Shown: piece after piece, positions 7,440 to 37,836 of the stretch
Position numbering within the stretch: the stretch's first letter is position 1
How the letters are laid out: each line of letters starts with the position of its first letter
Position numbers and translations under genes: made by a program
Origin: Xanthobacter sp. NM-59
GTDB taxonomy: Bacteria; Pseudomonadota; Alphaproteobacteria; Rhizobiales; Xanthobacteraceae
Direction of reading: 5' to 3'
NCBI RefSeq assembly: GCF_021401125.1
Contig: NZ_JACBFQ010000009.1
Span: forward strand, 62,001 to 126,000
Length of the DNA stretch: 64,000 nt
Notes under the pieces: generated by a model
What the model was told of the DNA's origin: nothing
What the model saw: only the letters and a program-made list of their open reading frames with translations
Database searches by the model: none

Positions 7440-9511
7440 GCGGCGGGACTCCAGCAGGCTTCGTCCAGCGGCACCGGCGCGGGCTCAGCCGCATCGGGCG
7501 CGAGCGCGCAGCGCAGGCCCACCAGCGCGCCGAGCGCCACCGCGCCCGCGGGGGTGGTGTCGCGCCGGTCGGTGAAGGTGGAAAGGACCCGGTCAATGTC
7601 CTCAAGCGGTGGCCGCGTGGCCGACGCCGCGCCACGGCTCCGGAAATGGGCGGCCAGGCGGGACAGCAGGCGCGCCACCGCCTGCCGCCGCAGCGGCGGC
7701 AATTGCGGCTCCACGCGCGCCAGATCCGCAATGTTGAGGCCAACCCGCAGATCAAGCAGCGCATTCTCCGGCTTGGGGGCGCCGGCTGGAGGGATGAGAA
7801 CGTGGCGCTGCACCAGCAGAGCGAACCGGTCCACCAGCCGACGCACCAGCGCCATCCGGTCGCCACCGCCACGCCCCTCGGCAATGGCCGCAAGATCGGC
7901 GCTGTTGGCGCGCAGCAGGCGGGCGATGCCGCGTTCCGCGCCCACCGCCGTCAGCATGCCGGCGGTGGAGGCCGCCGCCATCATGCCGATCAGCCCCGCG
8001 ACATTGCCGTTGACATAAGCCGCCAGGTCCACGCTCAAGCGGGTGTCGAGCATGGTGGCCAGGGGCACGTTCACGCACATCAGAAAGCCGAGCGGCCCCC
8101 ATTTCGGGGTCGCCATCAGGGCGCCGAACACGAGCAGGAAGGGGGCGCAGAGCGCCACCACCTCCACGAAGCTGTCGGCATAAGGCAGCGCCAGGAACTG
8201 CAGCAGCCCCACCGCGACGACCGCATAAAGGCTGTAGCGCGCAAACAGCCGCATCACCGGCACCGGATTGTCCATGACCGCGAACAGGGACAGGAAAATG
8301 GCCGCCATCTGGGCTGCGCCCGAGCCCTCATGCCATCCGGTGATGATCCAGAAGGCGCAGCACACCAGGATGCCGGCGCCCGCCGCGACCCCCGCCAGCG
8401 CCGCGCTGCGCACATCCACATGCAGCCGCGGATCACCAGAATAGCGCGCCACCATGCCGCGAAAACGCGTCCGCCGGGTGCGGCCATTGGCGATGTCCGC
8501 GCGCAGGGACAAGCAATTGTCCCACACAGCGATGAGCTCGGTGAGCCGCGCCAGCAGCGAACCCACCAGCAGGTCCCGCCAGGCCCACCGCTCCGGCCCC
8601 TCGCCGCGCAGCGTGGCCGTCAATTCGGCGATGCGGGCCCTGAGCGACACCGCATCGGCGGCGCTCTCGGCCCCGCCTGCGATCCAGGCGGCCACGTCGT
8701 CCAGCAGCGTGGTCACCCGCTGATCCAGCGGCCCGTCCCGGCGCAGCACGGACAGGCGATCACCGAGGCTTGAGAGGATGGGTAGCAGCGCGGTCATCTG
8801 CTGCTGCAGCTCCCGCGCCTGGCCGGCCACATGGCGCAGCTCCGAAGTGTCGTAGGGCAGATGGGTGGTGAGGGCGAGCAGATCCACCGTATCGGTGGCA
8901 AGCTTGCGCCGGTCGCGCTCCGAGGTCCTCGGGTCCGGCCGGCCGGACAGCACGTCGCCCGCCCAGCGGCCGGCATCGCTTACCCATGCATCGAGGCGCG
9001 CGGTCATCAGCGGGCCGAGATGGCGGGGCATGATCAGGCGCGCCACTACCGCGGTGCACAATATGCCCACCGTGATCTCTTCCGTGCGCGACAGGGCGGT
9101 TTGGAAGACGGCCTCCGGATTGCTGACACTCATGAAGGCGATGATGGCGCAGGTATAGCCGGCGAGCATCGCCACATAGCTGCGCGGGGTCCGATCGAGC
9201 AGGCTGATGAACAGGCACAGCCCCACCCAGCAGGCGAGCGCGAGGCACAATAGCTCTGGCACAGCCACCAGATTGGGCACCATCACCACCGCCGCGGCGG
9301 CGCCCAGAAAGGTGCCCATCACTCGGAACATGGCCTTGGACGTCACCGCCGCGGCCAGCGGCTGCATCACGATATAGGCCGTGGCCATGGCCCAATAGGG
9401 CTTTTCCAGATTGAGCTGGAGCGCGATCCAAAGGGCCACCACGGCGGCCCCGAAGGCCTTCAGGGAGAACAGAATTTCGTTGCGGCCGATGCCGAAGGGA
9501 AGCCGGATCAC
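7436..9511 (-). CDS. FUSC/AaeB-family inner-membrane efflux protein
   Basis: Inner-membrane component of 691 residues resembling AaeB (p-hydroxybenzoate efflux) and other FUSC proteins. It has the family layout of two similar membrane halves, each with about five or six helices (residues 15-165 and 355-510), each followed by a cytoplasmic region. The conserved start FSLKAFGAAVVALWIALQ and KPYWAMATAYIVMQP are clear. It overlaps marR upstream and the DUF1656 gene downstream by four bases each. The probable role is export of toxic aromatic carboxylic acids, by family and context only. Confidence 0.9.
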   Translation of the reverse strand: MIRLPFGIGRNEILFSLKAFGAAVVALWIALQLNLEKPYWAMATAYIVMQPLAAAVTSKAMFRVMGTFLGAAAAVVMVPNLVAVPELLCLALACWVGLCLFISLLDRTPRSYVAMLAGYTCAIIAFMSVSNPEAVFQTALSRTEEITVGILCTAVVARLIMPRHLGPLMTARLDAWVSDAGRWAGDVLSGRPDPRTSERDRRKLATDTVDLLALTTHLPYDTSELRHVAGQARELQQQMTALLPILSSLGDRLSVLRRDGPLDQRVTTLLDDVAAWIAGGAESAADAVSLRARIAELTATLRGEGPERWAWRDLLVGSLLARLTELIAVWDNCLSLRADIANGRTRRTRFRGMVARYSGDPRLHVDVRSAALAGVAAGAGILVCCAFWIITGWHEGSGAAQMAAIFLSLFAVMDNPVPVMRLFARYSLYAVVAVGLLQFLALPYADSFVEVVALCAPFLLVFGALMATPKWGPLGFLMCVNVPLATMLDTRLSVDLAAYVNGNVAGLIGMMAAASTAGMLTAVGAERGIARLLRANSADLAAIAEGRGGGDRMALVRRLVDRFALLVQRHVLIPPAGAPKPENALLDLRVGLNIADLARVEPQLPPLRRQAVARLLSRLAAHFRSRGAASATRPPLEDIDRVLSTFTDRRDTTPAGAVALGALVGLRCALAPDAAEPAPVPLDEACWSPAA

Positions 9512-9954
9512 GAGGTGAGCTCCTGCAGCAGCGCCGCCTCCAGCTTGGACAGGCCGCGCACCATGACCGCGAGTTCCTCGTCGGAGAGATCGGCAAAGAA
9601 CCGGTCGCGCAGCGTGGCCACCGTGGCCTCGATCTGCTCCACCTGCGCCGCCCCGCGCGGGGTGAGGCTGAGCAGCTTGGCCCTCCGGTCAGCAGGATCC
9701 TCGCGCCGCGACACCAGCCCTTCGGCCAGCAACGTGTCGACGATGCGCACCAGCGAGGGGCCTTCCAGCCCCAGCTCTTCGGCAATGGCGCCCTGGCGCA
9801 GCTCTCCACCCAGGCGGGCCAGCACCAGCAGCGGCAGCGCGGTGGCCTGGGACATGCCCCTTTCCCCCAACGCCTGGTCGATGGCGCGACGCCAATAGCG
9901 CGCCACCCGCGCCACCAGCTGACCAAGGATGTGACGTTCAAAGGAAGTAGGCAT
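9508..9954 (-). CDS. MarR-family transcriptional regulator
   Basis: Protein of 148 residues with the MarR winged-helix fold. The recognition region reads ELRQGAIAEELGLEGPSLVRIVDTLLAEGLV, followed by the wing SRREDPADRRAKLLSLTPRG, which carries the family D-x-R-x-x motif. The N- and C-terminal helices form the dimer interface. It is the first gene of the efflux operon and overlaps the FUSC gene by four bases, so it probably represses its own operon and is released by the exported aromatic acids. A candidate operator lies immediately upstream. Confidence 0.92.
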   Translation of the reverse strand: MPTSFERHILGQLVARVARYWRRAIDQALGERGMSQATALPLLVLARLGGELRQGAIAEELGLEGPSLVRIVDTLLAEGLVSRREDPADRRAKLLSLTPRGAAQVEQIEATVATLRDRFFADLSDEELAVMVRGLSKLEAALLQELTS

Positions 9955-11162: not shown

Positions 11163-11462
11163 GGATCATGAACAGAGCGCAAGCGGCACGCTGTCAAGCA
11201 CCAGAAGGCCGATTTAAATTTAGTATTATTCCAGATTAGGCCAATTCTTTGCCCAACCCATACGAAAGACGATGTTCAAACCGTTCCAGGTTTAAACAGA
11301 TGGGGATTTTGCAAACGAATTATACGATCCCACAAAGGCATTCGTACTGGAGAAGACACGGAGCCGTCCGTTAAGAAAGAACCACCAGCCGGGGCCAGCC
11401 ACACGCAAGTCAGCGCCACGCCCGGCGCAACTTGAACGATATTCGCCACCTGCGGGGATTTC
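11163..11462. other. Control region between araC-type gene and TonB receptor
   Basis: This 300-bp divergent region is clearly more AT-rich than its surroundings. It holds an Irr-box-like 17-mer (11219-11235) and a short inverted repeat AAACC-N6-GGTTT (11278-11293). No open reading frame in it looks coding. Both promoters and the AraC-type activator site should lie here. Confidence 0.6.
11219..11235. promoter_or_regulatory. Irr-box-like iron control element
   Basis: The sequence TTTAGTATTATTCCAGA matches 11 of 14 defined positions of the alphaproteobacterial Irr/ICE palindrome (TTTAGAA-N3-TTCTAAA). It lies about 55 bp from the araC-type start and 230 bp from the receptor start. Irr control of siderophore uptake is established in rhizobia; the assignment here is by motif match only. 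Confidence 0.45.
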
Positions 11463-29389: not shown

Positions 29390-30232
29390 TCAGGCCCGCG
29401 CGGGCCGGCCGATCCGCTTGGCCTTGGCAATGCGGTTGTTGACGAGGCTGGAGAGGATGACGATCACCGCCACCGTGGTCACATAAGCGATGACCTGCAT
29501 GCCCGTGGGCTCCGCGCGGTAACCCACGAGCGTGCGTAGCACCCGCCCGAGGGCGCCCTCGTCCGACAGCAGCCAGCTGCTGTTCCACACCGGATCCGCG
29601 AGCGACTGAATGAAGCCGGCATCCTGCAAGATCCCAACGACCTGCGCAGAGAGCCCCGCCGCCAGCAGCGTGATGACGAAAGCCGTCACCTTGAACAGAT
29701 ATTTCAAGGGCACCGCGACCAGCCCGCGATAGAGGATGAAGGCCACCACCGCGCCGGCCAGCAGCCCGAGCAGGCCCCCGCTGACCACGTTCGGCACGCT
29801 CTCCATGCCTGTGGACATGATGCCGTAGACGAACAGGACGATCTCGACGCCCTCCCGCAACACCGCCATGCCCACCACCACGGCGAGGGCTGTGAGGGGC
29901 TTGCGGCCTTCCTTCACATCCTTGCCCACCGCCTGCATCTGAATGACCATTTCGCGGCCGTGGCTCGCCATCCACACGACGGTCCACACCAGCATGACCA
30001 CCGCCACCGCAAGAATGGAGGCGTTCAGCAGCTCCTGGCCCGACCCGTCGAAGAGGTTGGAGATGCGTTCGGCAAACACCGCGAGGACCGCCGAGCCGAG
30101 CATGCCGCCGAGCACGCCGGCGCTGATCCAGAGCCCGCGCCCACGGATGCCCTCGGACGCCGCGAGCACCACACCAATGACGATGCCCGCCTCGAGCACC
30201 TCACGAAACACGACGAGGAGGGCCGCCAGCAT
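29390..30232 (-). CDS. FTR1-family high-affinity iron permease (EfeU-like)
   Basis: Inner-membrane iron permease of 280 residues with seven helices. Both REXXE iron-passage motifs are present: REVLE (10-14) in helix 1 and REGVE (126-130) in helix 4. In yeast Ftr1 and bacterial EfeU these carry Fe3+. The start at 30232 has a strong ribosome site (AGGAGATGTGAC); an upstream in-frame ATG at 30322 would add 30 non-conserved residues. It faces an operon encoding a multicopper oxidase and imelysins, which gives a ferroxidase/permease pair. Confidence 0.93.
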   Translation of the reverse strand: MLAALLVVFREVLEAGIVIGVVLAASEGIRGRGLWISAGVLGGMLGSAVLAVFAERISNLFDGSGQELLNASILAVAVVMLVWTVVWMASHGREMVIQMQAVGKDVKEGRKPLTALAVVVGMAVLREGVEIVLFVYGIMSTGMESVPNVVSGGLLGLLAGAVVAFILYRGLVAVPLKYLFKVTAFVITLLAAGLSAQVVGILQDAGFIQSLADPVWNSSWLLSDEGALGRVLRTLVGYRAEPTGMQVIAYVTTVAVIVILSSLVNNRIAKAKRIGRPARA

Positions 30233-30374
30233 GTCACATCTCCTTTCAGGCCACACCGGAACCAAAGGCCAGACACCCGCCGCGACCCCGCAGGGCCACA
30301 GCCGCGCCACGGCCCGGTGCACCAGGAACTGAGTTGAAGCGCGAAGAACCGCTTCTGGAAGATTTCGCGAACAA

Positions 30375-30391
30375 TTTAGAATGACTCAAAA
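30375..30391. promoter_or_regulatory. Irr-box-like iron control element
   Basis: TTTAGAATGACTCAAAA matches 12 of 14 defined positions of the Irr/ICE palindrome (TTTAGAA-N3-TTCTAAA), with a perfect left half. It lies 143 bp upstream of the FTR1 start. Irr represses or activates iron genes through this site in rhizobia. Identified by motif only. Confidence 0.5.
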
Positions 30392-30706
30392 ATTCAAAGC
30401 TTCAGCCGCATGTTCATGGGCCAGATAGATGCCACTTATTTTTAACACTGCCGCCAGCTCCATGTCAGCCGGGCGCCATTAGATTGGAATGAGTTTAAAT
30501 TGGCCTGACAGGCAGAGGCGCGGTGGAAGACAACCAAAGAGCGGCCGCATGCGGGCGCTGCGCGCAATTCAACAGGGGCCGCACCCACGACCGGCACTTT
30601 GCAGCTGTGGCAAACGGCATCATCGGCGCGACTGTGACTTTCATCCCAAACGGAATACCAGCTCCTGCAGCGAAGATGCTTGCACGCCGATACCTGTAAT
30701 GTAATT

Positions 30707-30719
30707 TGACCTAGGGTCA
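30707..30719. promoter_or_regulatory. Palindromic candidate operator of the imelysin operon
   Basis: TGACC-TAG-GGTCA is a perfect 13-bp inverted repeat, 145 bp before the imelysin start. Its TGA...TCA ends recall iron-responsive sites, but the spacing (seven bases) differs from the RirA box (nine). The regulator is unknown. Confidence 0.35.
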
Positions 30720-30863
30720 TCGCGACATAGAACAATTCCATTATTTGGCCACGACCTTGCGAGGCCGGCGACCCCTCCCTAAGCTGCCCGCGCTGGGGAG
30801 GCGGAGCCTTTGCGGTCGCCCCTGTCGTTTGAATGTTATTGGCCCGAACCAGGAGACAGGTTG

Positions 30864-32138
30864 ATGCGCGCGCATTTCATTGCCGGCGCGATCGCCGCCG
30901 TGGTGAGCTTCGCGGCGCCGGCTTTTGCCGAAGCGCCCAAGCCCCGCGATGTGATCACCCACTATGCCGACCTCGCACAGACCATGTATGGCGCGTCCTA
31001 CGAGACCGCCAAGCAGATGCAACAGGCCATCGACGCCTTCGTTGCGGCCCCCAGCGCCGAGACCCAGCAAAAGGCGAAGGATGCGTGGAAAAACGCCCGC
31101 ACCTTCTACCAGCAGACGGAGGCCTTTCGTTTCGGCAACAAGATTGTCGATGACTGGGAAGGCAATGTGAACGCCTGGCCGCTGGACGAGGGCCTTATCG
31201 ATTACGTGGACAAGTCCAAGTATGGTGAAACCTCGGACGAAAATCCGCTCTACACGGCCAATGTCATCGCCTCCAAGACGATCCGCATCGGCAAGAAGAC
31301 CATCGACGTCACCAAGATCACTCCGGACCTGCTGCACGACCTGAACACGGCGGGCGGGGTGGAGGCCAATGTCGGCTCGGGCTGGCACGCCATCGAATTC
31401 CTGCTGTGGGGTCAGGACCTCAACGGCACCGGGCCCGGCGCCGGCGCCCGCTCCTGGACCGATTATGACCTGAAGGCCTGCACCAACGGCAATTGCGACC
31501 GTCGCGGCCAGTATCTGAAGGTAGCCACCCAGACCCTGGTGGATGACCTGAAGGAAATGACCGACTCGTGGGCCCCCAAGGGCGCCGCGCGCAAGGCGCT
31601 TTTGAAGAAGAAGGACAATGCGGGCCTGGCTGTCATCTTCACCGGCCTCGGCTCCCTCTCCTATGGCGAGCTGGCGGGCGAGCGCATGAAGCTCGGCCTG
31701 ATCCTGCACGACCCGGAAGAGGAGCATGACTGCTTCTCCGACAACACCCACAACTCGCATTATTACGACGAAGTGGGCATCCGCGACGTGTATTACGGCC
31801 GCTTCACCAAGCCCGACGGCACCACCGTCACCGGCCCGTCCGTCGCCGATCTGGTGCGCGCCAAGGATCCGAAGGTCGCCGACGAGATCGACCAGAAGTC
31901 GGACGCCGCCCTCGCCGCGCTGAAGGCCATCAAGGACACCGCCGATTCCGGCGAGATGGCCTATGACCAGATGCTGGGCGAAGGCAATGAGAAGGGCGCC
32001 AAGCTCGTGCAGGCCGGTGTGGACGCCCTGGTGGCCCAGGCCCACGCCATCGAGCGCGGCGTGGCCGTCCTCAAGCTGCAGATCAAGGTTGAAGGCTCCC
32101 AGAGCCTCGACGAGCCCGCGGCCATCGGCAAGAAGTGA
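30864..32138 (+). CDS. Imelysin-family iron-regulated protein (peptidase M75)
   Basis: Exported protein of 424 residues. The signal peptide ends near PAFAEAPK (residue 23), followed by an all-helical imelysin fold. The diagnostic GxHxxE motif is intact: GWHAIE, with His175 and Glu178. The late half holds the second conserved part (GSLSYGELAGERMKLGL, EEHDCFSDNTHNSHYYD). IrpA-type imelysins are iron-regulated periplasmic or surface proteins thought to bind iron. It has a good ribosome site (AGGAGACAGG). It is first in a five-gene operon opposite FTR1. Confidence 0.93.
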   Translation: MRAHFIAGAIAAVVSFAAPAFAEAPKPRDVITHYADLAQTMYGASYETAKQMQQAIDAFVAAPSAETQQKAKDAWKNARTFYQQTEAFRFGNKIVDDWEGNVNAWPLDEGLIDYVDKSKYGETSDENPLYTANVIASKTIRIGKKTIDVTKITPDLLHDLNTAGGVEANVGSGWHAIEFLLWGQDLNGTGPGAGARSWTDYDLKACTNGNCDRRGQYLKVATQTLVDDLKEMTDSWAPKGAARKALLKKKDNAGLAVIFTGLGSLSYGELAGERMKLGLILHDPEEEHDCFSDNTHNSHYYDEVGIRDVYYGRFTKPDGTTVTGPSVADLVRAKDPKVADEIDQKSDAALAALKAIKDTADSGEMAYDQMLGEGNEKGAKLVQAGVDALVAQAHAIERGVAVLKLQIKVEGSQSLDEPAAIGKK

Positions 32139-32148
32139 GGCTTTGGCG

Positions 32149-33630
32149 GTGATCTCACGCCGTGCATTGATGCTGGGAGGGGCCGCGGCGGGAGCCGCGG
32201 CCTTCGTGCCATCCGCCCTCGTGGGCGAGGAGCTTCCCAAGGCCATCGACACCCTGCCCCCCGATGCCCCCCAGCTGCGCCTGTCGCTGGCGGCGGAGGA
32301 GATCAAGGTGCCCCTGCTCGGCGCGGACAAGCCGCCCACGCCCCGCTTCTGCTCCTATAATGGAAAGCCGTTCTTCACCCTGCGTGCCCCGCAAGGCACG
32401 CGCCTGATGGTGGAGTTCGACAACAGGCTTCCCGACCCGACCACCGTGCACTGGCACGGCATTCGCGGACCCTACATCTTCGATGGCGTCGCGCCCATCA
32501 CGCAGCCCGTCGTGCCCGCCGGGGGCCGCTTCTTCTACAATGTGCCGCTGCCGGATCCCGGCTTCTATTTCTTCCACCCCCATTGCGACGAGACCGGCCA
32601 GGTGGGGCGCGGGCTGGTGGGCCTTCTGTTCGTGGAGCACCCGCGCGAGAAGGAGGTGCATTTCGACCTGGAGCACATCATCGTCGTGAAGGACTGGCGC
32701 CTGGATGAAGCGGACGGCCGCTGGCTCCAGATGTTCACCGATGAAGGCGCCTCCACGGCCGGTTCCTTCGGCAATGTGCGCGCGGTCAACGGCTCCGTCG
32801 TTCCGCCGCGGGTGGAGGCCCCCGCTTATGGCGATGTGCGCGTGCGCGCCATCGTCGCCGATGCCACCCGCGTCATTGATTTCGGCTGCGACGTCGAAGA
32901 GGCGGCGGTTATCGCCATTGATGGCCAGGCCACCAAGCCCTTCGCCCTCGATGATGCCCCTGATGGCGTCTGGCGCATGGGCCCGGCCATGCGGCTCGAT
33001 GTGCATGTGCGCATGCCGGCGCCCGGGCAGGAAGTGAAGATCTATGATTACCGCACCGCCGAACCGTATCTGCTGACCACCCTGGTGGCGGTGGACAAGG
33101 GGCGCAGGAAGGTCCCTTTCAAGCCCAAGGCGCTGCCCACGCCCGCCGAGCTGCCCCTGCCGGATGTGGCGAAGGCCTCCCACCTTGATTTCCTGGTGCA
33201 GACCGCCGCCGGCGCCACCGCCATCGCCCCGCCCTTGCCGCCGGACGATCCGCTGGCGAAGGCGCTCATCGATTCCCTATGCGTGGGCGACAAGACCTTC
33301 TGGGCCATCAACCGCAATTCCTGGGGCGCGGGGGCGGACCTGCGCCTGCCGCCGCCGCTGAACGTGCTGAAGAACGGCGAGAGCTACGTGCTCACCATCA
33401 CCAACGTGACCAAGCACGTTCACCCGATGCATTTGCACGGGCACGTCTTCAAGGTACTCTCCTCCTCCAAGAAGAAGAACCTGCCGCAATTCCTGGCGGA
33501 TACGGTGATCGTCGAGCCCAATGAGAGCGTCGACATCGCCTTCAAGGCCGCCAGCGGCAACTGGGTGTTCCATTGCCACATCCTCGAGCACATGGATTCC
33601 GGCCTCATGGGCTGGTTCCGGGTAGCGTGA
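32149..33630 (+). CDS. Multicopper oxidase, probable ferroxidase
   Basis: Periplasmic copper oxidase of 493 residues. A twin-arginine signal (SRRALMLGG) directs export of the folded, copper-loaded enzyme. All four copper-binding motifs are intact: HWHG (His101, His103), HPHC, HPMHLHGH and HCHILEHM. The start is a GTG at 32149, eight bases after a GTGAGG ribosome site. Between an imelysin and a di-haem protein, and opposite FTR1, the likely role is oxidation of Fe2+ to Fe3+ for the permease. Laccase or cuprous oxidase activity is not excluded. The stop overlaps the next start by one base. Confidence 0.92.
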   Translation: MISRRALMLGGAAAGAAAFVPSALVGEELPKAIDTLPPDAPQLRLSLAAEEIKVPLLGADKPPTPRFCSYNGKPFFTLRAPQGTRLMVEFDNRLPDPTTVHWHGIRGPYIFDGVAPITQPVVPAGGRFFYNVPLPDPGFYFFHPHCDETGQVGRGLVGLLFVEHPREKEVHFDLEHIIVVKDWRLDEADGRWLQMFTDEGASTAGSFGNVRAVNGSVVPPRVEAPAYGDVRVRAIVADATRVIDFGCDVEEAAVIAIDGQATKPFALDDAPDGVWRMGPAMRLDVHVRMPAPGQEVKIYDYRTAEPYLLTTLVAVDKGRRKVPFKPKALPTPAELPLPDVAKASHLDFLVQTAAGATAIAPPLPPDDPLAKALIDSLCVGDKTFWAINRNSWGAGADLRLPPPLNVLKNGESYVLTITNVTKHVHPMHLHGHVFKVLSSSKKKNLPQFLADTVIVEPNESVDIAFKAASGNWVFHCHILEHMDSGLMGWFRVA

Positions 33631-34901
33631 TGGCCCGCACCAAGATTCATGCGGCGCTTCTCGCCACCGCCCTCGCCTGCGCCCTGCCGCTGGTGGCGAC
33701 GCCAGCGCGCGCCCTCGACGATCTGGACGTGCACATGGGCAAGGCCCTGTTCAAGCGCCCCTGGACGCCCGCCCCCACCACAACCCAGGCCGATGATGGC
33801 CTTGGCCCCCTGTTCGATGCGCGCTCCTGCGCCTCCTGCCACCCGGCCAGCGGGCGGGCGGCGGCGGCCTTCGACGCAAAGGGCCAGGTGGAAGGGCGCG
33901 GCATGGTTCTGATGATCGGCCAGCCGGATGGCGCGGCCGATCCCATCTATGGCCGGCGCCTGCAGATCGACGCGGTGCCGGGCCTCACGGCGGAAGGCAT
34001 CATCGCGGCGGACGACACCGCCTTGCCGGATGGCCGGCGGGCGCGCAAGCCCCGCATCGACGCGCCGGCTTACGGCCCGCTCAGCGCCAGGAGCGGCCTC
34101 TCCCTGCGCGTTGCGCCGGACCTCCACGGTCGCGGCGCCATGGCGGCGGTCTCCGATGCCACGCTGTTGGCCTTGGAGCAGGAGCAGGCGGCGGGGCACG
34201 ACGGCATTTCCGGCAAGGCGCGCCGCGTTCCGCAGGCGGACGGCAGCGTGCGCATCGGCCGGTTCGGCTGGAAAGCGAGCCACCCCACCATCGAGAGCCA
34301 GAGCGCGGAAGCCTTCTTCCTCGATCTCGGCCTGTCGAACCCGCTCCATCCCGAGCCCTGGGGGGATTGCACGGCGGCCCAGGCCGCCTGCCGCGGCGCG
34401 CCTCATGGCGCCCCTTATGGCGCCCCCACCGCGGCGCCGGGTGGCGCGCCGGGCTTCGAGATCGGCGCGGCGGTGCTGGACCGCGTGGTGGCCTATGTGG
34501 CCTCGCTTCCGGTGCCCCACGGCGCGACGCCGAGCGGCGGCGAAGGCGCGCGCTTGTTCGCCTCCGTGGGCTGCGCCGCCTGCCACCGCCCCGAATTGCC
34601 GACAGCGGACGGCGGCAAGGCACGCCTGTATTCGGATCTGCTGCTCCATGACATGGGACCCGATCTGGGTGACACCATGCCGGAGCCCCGCGCCGGCGCG
34701 TCCGACTGGCGCACCGCGCCGCTCATGGGTATCTCGCAGGCCATCGGCCGTGATACCGGTCTGCTGCACGATGGCCGTGCCCGCTCCGTTTCGGAGGCGG
34801 TGGGATGGCATGGGGGCGAGGCCGCCCCGGCGGCGGCCCGCTTCCGCGCCTTGCCCGACCGCGAGCGCGCCGCATTGCTCGACTATGTTTCATCCCTCTA
34901 G
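33630..34901 (+). CDS. Di-haem oxidoreductase, putative peroxidase (DHOR/DUF1111)
   Basis: Periplasmic c-type cytochrome of 423 residues. The signal peptide ends near TPARALDD (about residue 28). Two haem c sites are visible: CASCH (Cys67, Cys70, His71) and CAACH (Cys315, Cys318, His319). The family is distantly related to MauG/CcpA peroxidases and is often next to imelysin genes. The substrate is unknown; it may exchange electrons with the ferroxidase or with iron. The start overlaps the oxidase stop (TGATG). Haem attachment would use the Ccm system encoded at the left of the window. Confidence 0.9.
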   Translation: MARTKIHAALLATALACALPLVATPARALDDLDVHMGKALFKRPWTPAPTTTQADDGLGPLFDARSCASCHPASGRAAAAFDAKGQVEGRGMVLMIGQPDGAADPIYGRRLQIDAVPGLTAEGIIAADDTALPDGRRARKPRIDAPAYGPLSARSGLSLRVAPDLHGRGAMAAVSDATLLALEQEQAAGHDGISGKARRVPQADGSVRIGRFGWKASHPTIESQSAEAFFLDLGLSNPLHPEPWGDCTAAQAACRGAPHGAPYGAPTAAPGGAPGFEIGAAVLDRVVAYVASLPVPHGATPSGGEGARLFASVGCAACHRPELPTADGGKARLYSDLLLHDMGPDLGDTMPEPRAGASDWRTAPLMGISQAIGRDTGLLHDGRARSVSEAVGWHGGEAAPAAARFRALPDRERAALLDYVSSL

Positions 34902-34920
34902 GTTCTGGAAGTCGTAACGG

Positions 34921-36021
34921 ATGCTTGAGAACATTGCCCGCCCAGCCTTCGCCACGGCGCGCAAGGCACTCGCCGGCCTCGCCTGCGCCGCGACGCTCGC
35001 CACGGCTCCCGCCCTCGCGGCGAACCCCACCTTCGACGCGCCCGCCGTCATCGAGAGCTGGCTTCTGCCACGCTATGACGCCTTGGCCGGCGCCGCCGAG
35101 GCCCAGAAGACCGCCTGGAGCAGCTTCTGCGCCAAGCCCGATGCCGACGGCATTGCGGGCCTGAAGGAGGCCTATGGCAAGACCGCCGACGCCTGGAACG
35201 CGGTGGAATTCATCACCTTCGGCCCCATCAGCCAGGAGCTGCGGGCCGACCGCTTCAGCTTCTTCCCCGACCGGCGCAACGGCATCGCCCGCGGCATGGC
35301 CGAAATCATTTCCGACAGCGATCCCGCGCGCCTCTCGCCCGAGCGTTTCCCGCAGGCAAGCGCCGCCGTGCAGGGCCTGCCGGCGCTGGAGCGGCTGCTT
35401 TATGAGCAGAGCGCCGCGGAGGCGCTGGCGACGGGGCCGGAATCGGCGCGCCGCTGCGCCTTTGGCGTCGCTGTCGCCACCAATCTCGCCACGATCTCCC
35501 ACGACATCCGCGGCCAGTGGGGCGACCGCACCAGGGGGCTTCTGGGCGGGCTTGTCGCCGGCAAGGGCGACCCTGCCCTGTTCCCCGACGCGGCGGCGGT
35601 GCCCGGCATGATCCTCACTGACCTTTCCGGCGCCTTCCAGCGCGTGACCGACACCAAGATCCTGCCCGTGCTGGGCGCCGGCCCCTCGGAGGCCAAGCCC
35701 CTTTCCGCCGACAGCTGGCGTTCCGGCCGTTCCGGCCGCGTGGCGGCGAACATGGTGAAGAGCGCGGACGAGCTGCTGCGCACCATCGCGACCCAGATGC
35801 CGAGCCGGCCGCAATGGGTGGTGAACAAGGCCGCGAAGGAAGCGGACGCCGCCGCCGACAAGCTGCCCGCCGACCTCGGCGCCGCCGCGCAGACCGCCAG
35901 CGGCGCCGCGGCTCTGCAAGCGGACATCAAGACCTTCAAGGCCGCCCAGCTCGTGGTTTACCGGCCGATGGCCTCCTATTTCGGCATTTCCCTGGGCTTC
36001 AACGCCCTCGACGGCGACTGA
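34921..36021 (+). CDS. Second imelysin-family protein with altered GxHxxE motif
   Basis: Exported protein of 366 residues, signal peptide ending near PALAANPT (about residue 34), then an all-helical imelysin-like fold (AYGKTADAWNAVEFITFGPI, VYRPMASYFGISLGF). At the place of GxHxxE it reads GLPALE (152-157): the histidine is replaced by proline and only the glutamate is kept. It is therefore a divergent paralogue of the first imelysin and may bind metal differently or act structurally. It lies 19 bp after the di-haem protein and 11 bp before the DUF1513 gene. Confidence 0.88.
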   Translation: MLENIARPAFATARKALAGLACAATLATAPALAANPTFDAPAVIESWLLPRYDALAGAAEAQKTAWSSFCAKPDADGIAGLKEAYGKTADAWNAVEFITFGPISQELRADRFSFFPDRRNGIARGMAEIISDSDPARLSPERFPQASAAVQGLPALERLLYEQSAAEALATGPESARRCAFGVAVATNLATISHDIRGQWGDRTRGLLGGLVAGKGDPALFPDAAAVPGMILTDLSGAFQRVTDTKILPVLGAGPSEAKPLSADSWRSGRSGRVAANMVKSADELLRTIATQMPSRPQWVVNKAAKEADAAADKLPADLGAAAQTASGAAALQADIKTFKAAQLVVYRPMASYFGISLGFNALDGD

Positions 36022-36032
36022 GGAGTCCTTCG

Positions 36033-37166
36033 ATGGGATCCGACGAAGAGCGCTCCACGTTTCTGCTCTCGCGCCGCGCATTTGTGGCCGGCGGGCTGCT
36101 GGCGGTTCCGGCCTTCTCGCGCCTCAAGGCGGCAACGGCGGACGCCGGCTGGCTCTCCACCGCCGGGCTCGCGGAGGGCTTTGCCGCCGTCTGCGTCGAT
36201 GGCGCGGGTGACGCTGATGTGGATGCCCCGTCCGCCGCCCGCCTGCACGGGGTGGAGGCAAGCCCCACCGGTCCGCTGGCGGTGGCGGTCGGGCGGCGTC
36301 CCGGCAAGCTGGCGGTGGTGTTCCGGCGCGACCGGCCGGGCGTGCTCAGCACCCTGCAGCCAGGGGAAGGCCGCGTGTTCTCCGGCCATGGCCGGTTCTC
36401 TGCGGACGGCCGCTTCTTCTTCATGGCGGAGATCGAGCACAGCCAGCTGGAGAATGGCCGGCGGACCATGGGGCGCGGCGTGCTGACATGCCGCGACGTG
36501 GCCGGCGGCTTCGCCATCCGCGACCAGTGGTCCACCGGCGGCGACGGCCCCCATGACCTGATGCTCTCCGGCAACGTGCTGGTGATCGCCAATGGCGGCA
36601 TTGAGCCCAACACGCCCGAGGCGCTCGACGCCGAGGTGACCGGCTCCACCATCGCGCTGCTGGACCCCTCTTCCGGCGGACAGAGGGGCGAGGGGCGGCT
36701 TAGCGCTGATCTCGCCAGCCTGTCGCTGCGCCATCTTTCCCGCGATGGAAACGGCAATACGGTGGTGGCCGCCCAGGACCTGCTGAAGGACGGGGTCGCC
36801 CGCCCGCTGCTATTCTCCATCGTCGCCGACGGCGCGCTGCGCCCGTTCGATGCGCCGGAAAACGCTTGGCGCGAGCTGCGCGGCTATGTGGGCTCGGTGG
36901 CCCATGATGCGTCGGGCCGCTTCGTGGCCTGCTCTTCCCCCCGCGGCGGACGAGTGGCCGTGTGGAAGGCCGACGGGCGCTATATCGGCGCCGTTCCATT
37001 GGTGGACGGCTGCGGCCTAGCCATGACTTATGAGCCGGGCAGTTTCATTGCCGCCAGCGGCTATGGCGAGGTGGTGCGCATCGCGGTGAAGGATGATGGC
37101 GTCGCCATCGTCGCCCGGCACACGGGCGGCCCCCGCTTCGACAACCACATGGTGCGCATCGGCTGA
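36033..37166 (+). CDS. DUF1513 protein with Tat signal
   Basis: Protein of 377 residues. The N-terminus has a twin-arginine motif (LSRRAFVAGGLL), so it is exported folded. The rest is beta-rich with repeated SADGRFF, DASGRFVAC and DGPHDLML segments, consistent with a beta-propeller, as predicted for DUF1513. Function is unknown, but the family is regularly found with imelysin and DHOR genes in iron-regulated loci. The ribosome site is good (GAGGAG). It is last in the operon. Confidence 0.88.
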   Translation: MGSDEERSTFLLSRRAFVAGGLLAVPAFSRLKAATADAGWLSTAGLAEGFAAVCVDGAGDADVDAPSAARLHGVEASPTGPLAVAVGRRPGKLAVVFRRDRPGVLSTLQPGEGRVFSGHGRFSADGRFFFMAEIEHSQLENGRRTMGRGVLTCRDVAGGFAIRDQWSTGGDGPHDLMLSGNVLVIANGGIEPNTPEALDAEVTGSTIALLDPSSGGQRGEGRLSADLASLSLRHLSRDGNGNTVVAAQDLLKDGVARPLLFSIVADGALRPFDAPENAWRELRGYVGSVAHDASGRFVACSSPRGGRVAVWKADGRYIGAVPLVDGCGLAMTYEPGSFIAASGYGEVVRIAVKDDGVAIVARHTGGPRFDNHMVRIG

Positions 37167-37278: not shown

Positions 37279-37836
37279 ATGAAGTGGGTCGTTCTGGTGG
37301 GCAGCGTGCGCAAGGGTTCCTACAATGCCGCCATCGCCCGTGCGCTTTCGGGGCTCGCGCCGGAGGGCGTGAGCGTCGAGATCCTGCCGTCCATCGCCCT
37401 CTTGCCCATCTATGACGGCGACATCGAAGCAGCCGGCATTCCCGAATCCGTCACCGCTTTGTCGAACGCCATCACCGGTGCCGACGCGCTCGTGATCGTG
37501 ACGCCGGAATACAACTATTCGGTCCCCGGCGGGCTCAAGAATGCCATCGACTGGCTCTCCCGGCTCAAGGAAAAGCCGCTGAAGGGCAAGCCCACCGTCC
37601 TCCAGTCCGCCTCCATGGGCGGGTTCGGTGGCGCGCGGGCGCAGTATCATCTCCGCCAGGTGCTGGTGTGCCTCGACGTGCCGGTGATGAATGTGCCGGA
37701 AGTGATGGTGGGACAGGTCCATACCAAGGTTACCGACGGCACCCTGACCGACCAGGGCACCTTGAGCTTCATCGAGGGGCAGCTCGCCGCCTTCCACGAT
37801 TTCGTGCGGCGCCAGAAGGCCGGCGCCGGCGCCTGA
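37279..37836 (+). CDS. NADPH-dependent FMN reductase
   Basis: Flavodoxin-fold quinone/metal reductase of 185 residues, similar to ChrR/YieF and yeast Lot6. The phosphate-binding loop GSVRKGSYNAAIA and the FMN loop TPEYNYSVPGGLKNAIDWLSR are conserved. It is cytoplasmic. It reduces quinones and may reduce chromate or ferric complexes non-specifically. It lies 112 bp after the iron operon, behind a hairpin, so whether it is co-regulated with iron uptake is open. Confidence 0.93.
   Translation: MKWVVLVGSVRKGSYNAAIARALSGLAPEGVSVEILPSIALLPIYDGDIEAAGIPESVTALSNAITGADALVIVTPEYNYSVPGGLKNAIDWLSRLKEKPLKGKPTVLQSASMGGFGGARAQYHLRQVLVCLDVPVMNVPEVMVGQVHTKVTDGTLTDQGTLSFIEGQLAAFHDFVRRQKAGAGA

What the first reader, a model, noticed from the sequence alone, without database searches (positions are those of the whole stretch)
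29390..37166. Ferroxidase/permease iron locus: FTR1 opposite imelysin, multicopper oxidase, di-haem protein, second imelysin and DUF1513
Sequence shows an FTR1 permease with both REXXE motifs facing a tightly packed five-gene operon in which a Tat-exported multicopper oxidase with all copper ligands sits between an imelysin and a di-haem oxidoreductase. Known systems pair FTR1 with EfeO/EfeB, or in yeast with the multicopper ferroxidase Fet3. Imelysin-DHOR-DUF1513 clusters are known separately. Here they seem to be merged, suggesting a bacterial Fet3-Ftr1-like path with imelysins as periplasmic iron carriers and the di-haem protein as electron partner.
Basis: partly seen in the sequence, partly recalled or inferred. 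Interest (0 to 1): 0.72.

Follow-up and report, generated by a model that had tools for sequence, protein, structure and literature searches.

The report
Copper-oxidase-linked bacterial iron uptake operon
A Xanthobacter-like bacterium carries an iron-permease gene back to back with a five-gene operon that sets a multicopper oxidase inside a known imelysin iron cluster, a layout present in all seven genomes of its genus that were sampled; it would be a bacterial counterpart of the oxidase-plus-permease iron uptake of yeast, although the oxidase's action on iron is only predicted.

Summary
In detail: FTR1 (-) faces imelysin-MCO-DHOR-imelysin-DUF1513 (+) at 29390-37166 of a Xanthobacter-like genome. 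The 4-gene imelysin cluster is widespread. The less known part is a 5-gene form with a multicopper oxidase (MCO) between first imelysin and di-haem protein: 5 of 58 non-self loci in a class survey, 10 of 248 genomes in the family of a Microvirga, Azospirillum plasmids, and all 24 DUF1513-bearing genomes among 149 of the window's family. FTR1 is a later, single addition: adjacent in 15 of 15 readable loci of one clade (Xanthobacter, Aquabacter, Azorhizobium), while 26 of 29 searched MCO-operon genome handles outside it have no FTR1. So a Fet3-Ftr1-like pairing is plausible in this clade only. Three features mark that clade: adjacent FTR1; Leu, as in Fet3, at the T1-copper axial place (15 of 15) against Met (17 of 17 without adjacent FTR1); and a RGAAYNRTTCY palindrome 116-155 nt before the imelysin start (15 of 15; 0.12 expected), with a weaker element on the FTR1 side. 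These are one evolutionary event, not three independent ones. The genome encodes Irr. Ferroxidase activity, iron flow and Irr binding are inferred. New variant of a known kind.

The parts
29390..30232 (-). FTR1-family permease (280 aa; REVLE and REGVE motifs)
   Evidence: Pfam PF03239 118 bits; NCBIfam EfeU 137 bits, below its 255 cut-off; only FTR1 of the genome; adjacent in 15 of 15 clade loci, window included
30375..30391 (.). FTR1-side palindrome TTTAGAATGACTCAAAA, Irr-box (ICE)-like, 143 nt before the FTR1 start
   Evidence: 2 mismatches to TTTAGAANNNTTCTAAA (consensus recalled); 2 sites with up to 3 mismatches in 64 kb, 0.09 expected, 1 of 100 shuffles has as many; best FTR1-side site has 2-4 mismatches to a degenerate form in 15 of 15 loci, without a shuffle control
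30483..30499 (.). second, weaker FTR1-side palindrome ATTGGAATGAGTTTAAA
   Evidence: 3 mismatches to the degenerate ICE form; weak
30729..30739 (.). IML1-side palindrome core AGAACAATTCC, 135 nt before the imelysin start
   Evidence: only RGAAYNRTTCY in the 64 kb; one copy at -116 to -155 in 15 of 15 FTR1-clade loci, 0.12 expected in all 15 together
30864..32138 (+). IML1, imelysin with GxHxxE motif (GWHAIE), Sec-type leader by eye
   Evidence: PF09375 292 bits; GWHAIE in 15 of 15 FTR1-clade loci, GYHA(I/V)E in 17 of 17 others with the MCO
32149..33630 (+). multicopper oxidase with Tat-type leader, T1 axial Leu486
   Evidence: Pfam; ligands; AF2 model pLDDT 78, best PDB match 6vow TM 0.75/0.90
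33630..34901 (+). DHOR di-haem oxidoreductase, short form, two CxxCH
   Evidence: PF06537 173 bits
34921..36021 (+). IML2, imelysin without GxHxxE
   Evidence: PF09375 117 bits; GxHxxE absent in 15 of 15 and 17 of 17
36033..37166 (+). DUF1513 protein with Tat-like leader (LSRRAF, by eye)
   Evidence: PF07433 262 bits; sequence
37279..37836 (+). FMN_red flavoprotein downstream; possible accessory, also downstream in the two Xanthobacter-type loci checked
   Evidence: PF03358; same family in L006 and L190

Best explanation
In the Xanthobacter-Aquabacter-Azorhizobium clade this divergent locus likely works as one iron-uptake unit in which an exported multicopper oxidase is predicted to oxidise ferrous iron, an imelysin would take up the ferric product, and the FTR1 permease facing the operon would carry it into the cell, under likely control by Irr. 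Shown here: the gene order, its conservation, the nested distribution (4-gene cluster, MCO form, MCO form with FTR1), the Met/Leu difference at the T1 copper, the conserved palindromes and the presence of Irr. Inferred: the direction of that history; the MCO substrate is Fe2+; iron passes to IML1 (GxHxxE site) and then FTR1; DHOR, of a family described as putative peroxidases, removes peroxide or handles electrons; Irr binds both palindromes and switches both transcripts on at low iron. In relatives without FTR1 the same oxidase-imelysin module would feed another importer.
For: FTR1 adjacent in 15 of 15 loci (L135-L147, L190, window); 2 more genomes (G098, G116) have MCO and FTR1 on different contigs. 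The genome's only FTR1 and only M75 proteins lie here, so no EfeO is there as another partner. MCO and DUF1513 co-occur: all 24 DUF1513 genomes of 149 in the family are among the 25 with the MCO clade. Axial Leu in 15 of 15 with adjacent FTR1, Met in 17 of 17 without and in 10 of 10 further loci (one shared with the 17); Leu is the Fet3 state and goes with higher T1 potential (passages). D or E at 248 in 15 of 15. Palindrome 15 of 15 and FTR1-side elements; Irr in the genome, NF045678 221 bits, cut-off 150, with a GCPFHD stretch; a review notes the haem regulatory motif in Xanthobacter Irr (passage). The Pseudomonas imelysin operon is Fur-regulated (passage). That EfeO acts like Fet3 towards EfeU had been suggested before (passage in PMC3577903); here a real MCO is present.
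Against: The MCO operon exists without any FTR1 over the cut-off in 26 of 29 genome handles, so oxidation cannot always serve FTR1. Adjacent FTR1, Leu486, the Trp in GWHAIE and the palindrome mark one clade, hence one shared history, not independent events. Thr421 stands where Fet3 D409 is expected, in 31 of 31 operon MCOs. No DXXE in the last loop of FTR1. 7 of 16 hand-picked non-operon MCOs also carry Leu or Phe there, so Leu alone does not mean ferroxidase. Methylocella-type MCOs (P0037, P0038), nested in the Leu clade, have Met. One member of the MCO clade (L189) stands with no imelysin gene near. No expression or activity data.
Confidence: 0.5

Rival explanations
1. The MCO is a guard rather than a feeder: it and the di-haem protein remove Fe2+ or Cu+ and peroxide in the periplasm, limiting Fenton damage around the imelysins, and FTR1 is just another iron gene under the same regulator.
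For: MCO operon without FTR1 in 26 of 29 genome handles. DHOR is described as a putative peroxidase family (Pfam text). In one relative a ferritin-like gene sits between IML1 and the MCO (L013).
Against: FTR1 adjacency in 15 of 15 loci of the clade with a co-occurring T1 difference; FTR1 is the sole copy there.
Confidence: 0.25
2. The MCO is a cuprous oxidase or laccase-type enzyme of the CueO/CopA kind that was trapped in an iron operon; its substrate is not iron.
For: Best NCBIfam profiles are CopA and CueO; nearest solved structures are bacterial laccases and MCOs; Thr421 at the expected D409 place; an orphan clade member exists (L189).
Against: Scores are far below the curated cut-offs (122 of 479 and 98 of 525 bits); no copper-handling family among the 22 neighbour proteins scanned in the window and relatives; all 9 of 80 named loci with MCO identity of 40% or more have it between imelysin and DHOR, as have 10 of 10.
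Confidence: 0.2
3. The MCO matures the neighbouring imelysin or di-haem protein (for instance by oxidative modification) and takes no part in iron flux.
For: Conserved neighbour order MCO-DHOR; di-haem relatives of the MauG type modify partner proteins (recalled).
Against: 51 of 58 class loci have both imelysins and DHOR with no MCO in the operon, so it is not needed for them in general.
Confidence: 0.05

Closest known systems
Pseudomonas aeruginosa PA4370-PA4373 / Vibrio VC1264-VC1266 type imelysin operon (GxHxxE imelysin, DUF1111/DHOR, variant imelysin)
   Same: Two imelysins (GxHxxE and variant) with a di-haem protein; iron-regulated in Pseudomonas (passages in PMC3143127). That its fourth gene is DUF1513 is recalled
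   Different: No multicopper oxidase named there; [quoted passage not shown] the DHOR here is shorter than in the common 4-gene cluster
Yeast Fet3-Ftr1 ferroxidase-permease
   Same: FTR1 with two REXXE motifs beside an exported MCO with Leu at the T1 axial place
   Different: Thr at the expected D409 place, no DXXE in the last FTR1 loop, imelysins and DHOR added, MCO widespread without FTR1
EfeUOB
   Same: FTR1-family permease plus M75 (imelysin) periplasmic protein
   Different: No cupredoxin-M75 EfeO in the genome (one search finds only IML1 and IML2, both M75 only); MCO and DHOR at the locus; EfeB not searched
FtrABCD / P19-cFtr1
   Same: FTR1 permease with a copper protein nearby
   Different: None of the eight locus proteins scanned matches P19 or polyferredoxin families; not searched elsewhere in the genome

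Membership tests
Imelysin-DHOR-imelysin-DUF1513 operon (PA4370 type) | Four families in this order | tested here: met
   Window. 56 of 58 non-self class loci hold all four (51 without and 5 with an MCO); 55 of these 56 in one order and strand (L164 has IML1 on the other strand); L175 cut by contig end, L184 without DHOR
Imelysin-DHOR-imelysin-DUF1513 operon (PA4370 type) | First imelysin GxHxxE, second variant | tested here: met
   GWHAIE 15 of 15; GxHxxE absent from IML2 15 of 15
Fet3-Ftr1 ferroxidase-permease | FTR1 with two REXXE motifs | tested here: met
   REVLE and REGVE in 15 of 15
Fet3-Ftr1 ferroxidase-permease | T1 axial Leu in the MCO | tested here: met
   Leu486; 15 of 15 in the clade; Fet3 state from a passage
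Fet3-Ftr1 ferroxidase-permease | Acidic iron site (E185, D283, D409) | tested here: inconclusive
   D/E248 at the probable E185 place (15 of 15), Thr421 at the probable D409 place; Fet3 sequence recalled and placed by motif, no structural superposition; D283 not placed
Fet3-Ftr1 ferroxidase-permease | DXXE in the last outer loop of Ftr1 | tested here: not met
   In the window DxxE occurs only near residue 104, before the second REXXE; 6 of 15 clade FTR1s have no DxxE at all
Fet3-Ftr1 ferroxidase-permease | Ferroxidase activity and complex with the permease | not testable with these tools
   Needs biochemistry
EfeUOB | EfeO (cupredoxin plus M75) present | tested here: not met
   Only two M75 proteins in the genome, both without a cupredoxin hit
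EfeUOB | EfeB DyP peroxidase | not tested
   No genome search made for it
CueO/CopA copper-resistance MCO | Curated NCBIfam cut-off | tested here: not met
   122 of 479 (CopA) and 98 of 525 bits (CueO)
Irr regulon | Irr encoded in the genome | tested here: met
   L193, NF045678 221 bits, cut-off 150
Irr regulon | ICE box at the promoters | tested here: inconclusive
   Conserved palindromes, but the ICE consensus is recalled and binding was not measured

The most novel reading that the evidence does not exclude
Bacteria evolved their own Fet3-Ftr1: an imelysin operon that had already taken in a multicopper oxidase recruited an FTR1 permease once, at the root of the Xanthobacter-Aquabacter-Azorhizobium clade, and in the same step the oxidase lost its T1 axial methionine (raising its potential to ferroxidase level) and both sides came under Irr, giving an oxidase-driven, imelysin-relayed ferric import route.
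Probability: 0.35. Interest if true: 0.78.

Novelty: new variant of a known kind. Interest (0 to 1): 0.56.

Why it matters
What imelysin operons do is an old open question. A lineage in which the operon gained an oxidase and then a permease, with a single-residue change at the copper site mapped to the same branch, turns it into a direct test: the same operon with and without FTR1, Leu against Met. It would also give a bacterial, genetically easy model of oxidase-coupled FTR1 transport, described in the review seen here for yeast.

Tried and rejected
DHOR structure prediction failed (pLDDT 43), so no fold search was made with it. Upstream genes of FTR1-less operons were scanned for a substitute importer: TonB receptor and TonB in L009, FecCD permease in L008, ferritin-like gene in L013, but molybdopterin, TPP, HI0933-like, TRAP-type and other genes elsewhere; no common partner. 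L079 (Rhizobium) has an MCO and an FTR1 about 2 kb apart with transposase-like and fragmentary ORFs between: not counted as linkage. An obligate FTR1-MCO pairing was rejected. Short DHOR as a consequence of MCO presence was rejected: L133, without MCO, also has the short form.

Rows dropped or odd: the tree used 27 of 51 four-gene MCO-less loci, 11 of 15 FTR1 loci, 6 of 8 Ancylobacter-type and 9 other MCO loci. Searches left out L189 (orphan MCO, labelled 'op') and L191 (frame problem), and their 'non-operon' column wrongly holds L006 (an operon MCO); no number from that column is used here. One search compared 16 hand-picked non-operon MCOs. One search examined 9 of 11 listed other MCO loci (L241, L242 had no profile assignment) and chose start codons by a crude rule. 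In one search the gap was misbounded (about 11 kb) for L140, L141, L145 and L146. Of the 56 four-gene class loci, L132 and L157 hold under 2 kb upstream of IML1, so FTR1 could be missed there.
Full report
What is there. FTR1 lies on the - strand at 29390-30232; the + strand group IML1-MCO-DHOR-IML2-DUF1513 runs from 30864 to 37166 with spacings of 10 nt, a 1-nt overlap, 19 and 11 nt. All five operon products have export-type leaders by eye, two of them twin-arginine-like (MCO, DUF1513). Beyond FTR1 lie molybdate-type transport genes and a ModE-like regulator; among the 9 named MCO-operon loci that regulator is seen only in the Xanthobacter one (L006). The genome is Xanthobacter-like: the nearest named matches of the MCO and FTR1 are from Xanthobacter.

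Context in its own genome. It has one FTR1 and two M75 proteins, both in this operon. So no EfeO is present, and if FTR1 uses an imelysin it must be one of these.

The cluster across the class. A DUF1513 profile search of 385 genomes of the class gave 59 strong loci including our own. All 58 others were fetched and scanned with profiles built here (recount). 56 of 58 hold both imelysins, DHOR and DUF1513, 55 of them in one order and strand; 5 of 58 also have the MCO between IML1 and DHOR (L123, L134, L180, L185, L186); FTR1 was found in none of the stretches (median 5.8 kb upstream of IML1; two under 2 kb). Named loci from a separate scan agree: all 9 of 80 loci with MCO identity of 40% or more (three Ancylobacter, Microvirga, Xanthobacter, Arenibaculum, and Parvibaculaceae, Rhodospirillum and Hyphomicrobiales MAGs) have the 5-gene order, and none of the other 71 (38% or less) shows imelysin, DHOR or DUF1513 matches to the window proteins. 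Two Azospirillum plasmids show the 5 genes in public annotation, with no FTR1 annotated in the 19 kb read. In the family of the Microvirga locus L005, 10 of 248 genomes have this MCO clade, and all 10 loci show imelysin-MCO-DHOR.

Within the window's family (149 genomes) 25 have the MCO clade at 51% identity or more and 24 have DUF1513; the odd one (G048) is a fragmentary assembly. A further genome (G138, 39% identity, L189) has a clade member with no imelysin gene near. FTR1 was searched in the same 149. In 15 of the 17 genomes with MCO identity of 67% or more FTR1 is divergent and adjacent; in the other two (G098, G116) MCO and FTR1 lie on different contigs. The six Ancylobacter-type genomes (g23) have no FTR1; G001 and G048 have one elsewhere.

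FTR1 is not needed for the operon. Of 29 MCO-operon genome handles outside the FTR1 clade that were searched, 26 have no FTR1 over the Pfam cut-off (G786 has a sub-threshold fragment; several are MAGs) and 3 (G001, G048, G199) have one on another contig. L002 and G084 are one genome, so 28 genomes at most.

History. On a tree of the four shared proteins (53 rows; quick method) the MCO-bearing operons lie on one side of a branch (SH-aLRT 100) with one MCO-less member inside (L133, same genus code as three MCO-bearing genomes): one gain and one loss if the root is outside. FTR1-bearing loci are one nested clade (SH-aLRT 100). The root is a midpoint, so direction is inferred.

The copper site. 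The T1 axial place is Leu in 15 of 15 FTR1-linked operon MCOs and Met in 17 of 17 operon MCOs without adjacent FTR1 (two of those genomes, G001 and G199, have an FTR1 elsewhere); all keep 10 His and the Cys except L191, which has a local frame problem. Met also stands in 10 of 10 loci (one shared). Among the nearest 41 database proteins 39 have Leu. Passages in PMC11817551 and PMC10741624 say that Fet3 has the non-coordinating Leu and that Leu or Phe goes with higher potential, Met with lower. The two exceptions, P0037 and P0038 (Methylocella), sit inside the Leu clade on a quick tree, so Met probably came back there. Other fixed differences of the FTR1 clade include Thr310, Val420 and Lys422 and GWHAIE for GYHA(I/V)E in IML1. 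An acidic residue at 248 (15 of 15 in the clade, 13 of 16 outside) may match Fet3 E185, but Thr421 stands where D409 is expected; this rests on a recalled Fet3 sequence and motif alignment. PMC10741624 says that a fungal enzyme with only one of the acids still shows ferroxidase activity (passage). 7 of 16 hand-picked non-operon MCOs have Leu or Phe at the axial place, so Leu is not proof. The model (pLDDT 78) is weak at the T1 loop and was used only for fold: nearest 6vow, a Pseudomonas MCO.

Regulation. The core RGAAYNRTTCY occurs once in the 64 kb window, at 30729, 135 nt before IML1; one copy lies at -116 to -155 in 15 of 15 FTR1-clade loci (expected total 0.12 from dinucleotide shuffles), with 0 of 8 Ancylobacter-type, 0 of 9 other MCO loci and 1 of 52 MCO-less loci. 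The 15 loci are related, so conservation by descent counts in part. ICE-like 17-mers also lie on the FTR1 side, with 2 to 4 mismatches to a degenerate form and no shuffle control. With the strict 17-mer, sites with up to 3 mismatches lie in 10 of 15 FTR1-clade, 5 of 8 Ancylobacter-type, 1 of 9 other MCO and 0 of 52 MCO-less regions, against 0.0, 0.1, 0.0 and 0.7 expected. The genome encodes Irr. The ICE consensus is recalled; the passages seen describe ICE boxes without printing it.

Reading. The most economical account is a known iron-linked imelysin operon that gained an MCO early and FTR1 late. In the late form, oxidation by a high-potential MCO followed by FTR1 import is the likeliest mechanism, at about even odds; a protective role is the main rival. 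An earlier suggestion that EfeO itself acts like Fet3 for EfeU (passage in PMC3577903) shows that a bacterial oxidase partner for FTR1 has been looked for; the same passage notes that EfeO-like structures hold no bound metal.

Literature. Searches for imelysin with multicopper oxidase, FTR1, DUF1111, DUF1513, di-heme and genus names showed no paper that, from the rows listed or the passages seen, describes an MCO inside an imelysin operon. Lists were capped (10 of 578 papers, 12 of 56) and only open-licence papers are held, so this is not proof of absence. The three papers that hold imelysin, multicopper oxidase and FTR1 together were looked at in passages and name Fet3 or SufI, not such an operon. 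Passages only were seen of PMC3143127, PMC9174327, PMC7762939, PMC3413700, PMC10374146, PMC11817551, PMC10741624, PMC3827258 and PMC3577903.

Noticed in passing
L013:4412-5464: A transposase-type ORF and a ferritin-like gene sit between IML1 and the MCO of a Hyphomicrobiales MAG.
   Followed up: partly
L189 (G138), MCO at 8368-9825: An orphan member of the operon MCO clade (39% identity, axial Met) stands beside a c-type cytochrome with no imelysin genes near.
   Followed up: partly
L133 against L134, L185, L186: Within one genus code (g86) one genome has the operon without MCO and three with it: a natural loss to compare.
   Followed up: partly
L185 and L186: The second imelysin gene seems to occur twice in a row in two genomes.
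   Followed up: no
window 33630-34901 and L112-L134: DHOR of the MCO lineage lacks an N-terminal stretch and some loops that DHOR of the common 4-gene cluster has.
   Followed up: partly
window 37279-37836: An FMN reductase follows the operon here and in two Xanthobacter-type loci; a possible ferric reductase partner.
   Followed up: no
window 11219-11235: The only other ICE-like 17-mer of the window with up to 3 mismatches, TTTAGTATTATTCCAGA.
   Followed up: no
L079:8839-13073: In a Rhizobium a distant MCO and an FTR1 lie about 2 kb apart with transposase-like debris between.
   Followed up: partly
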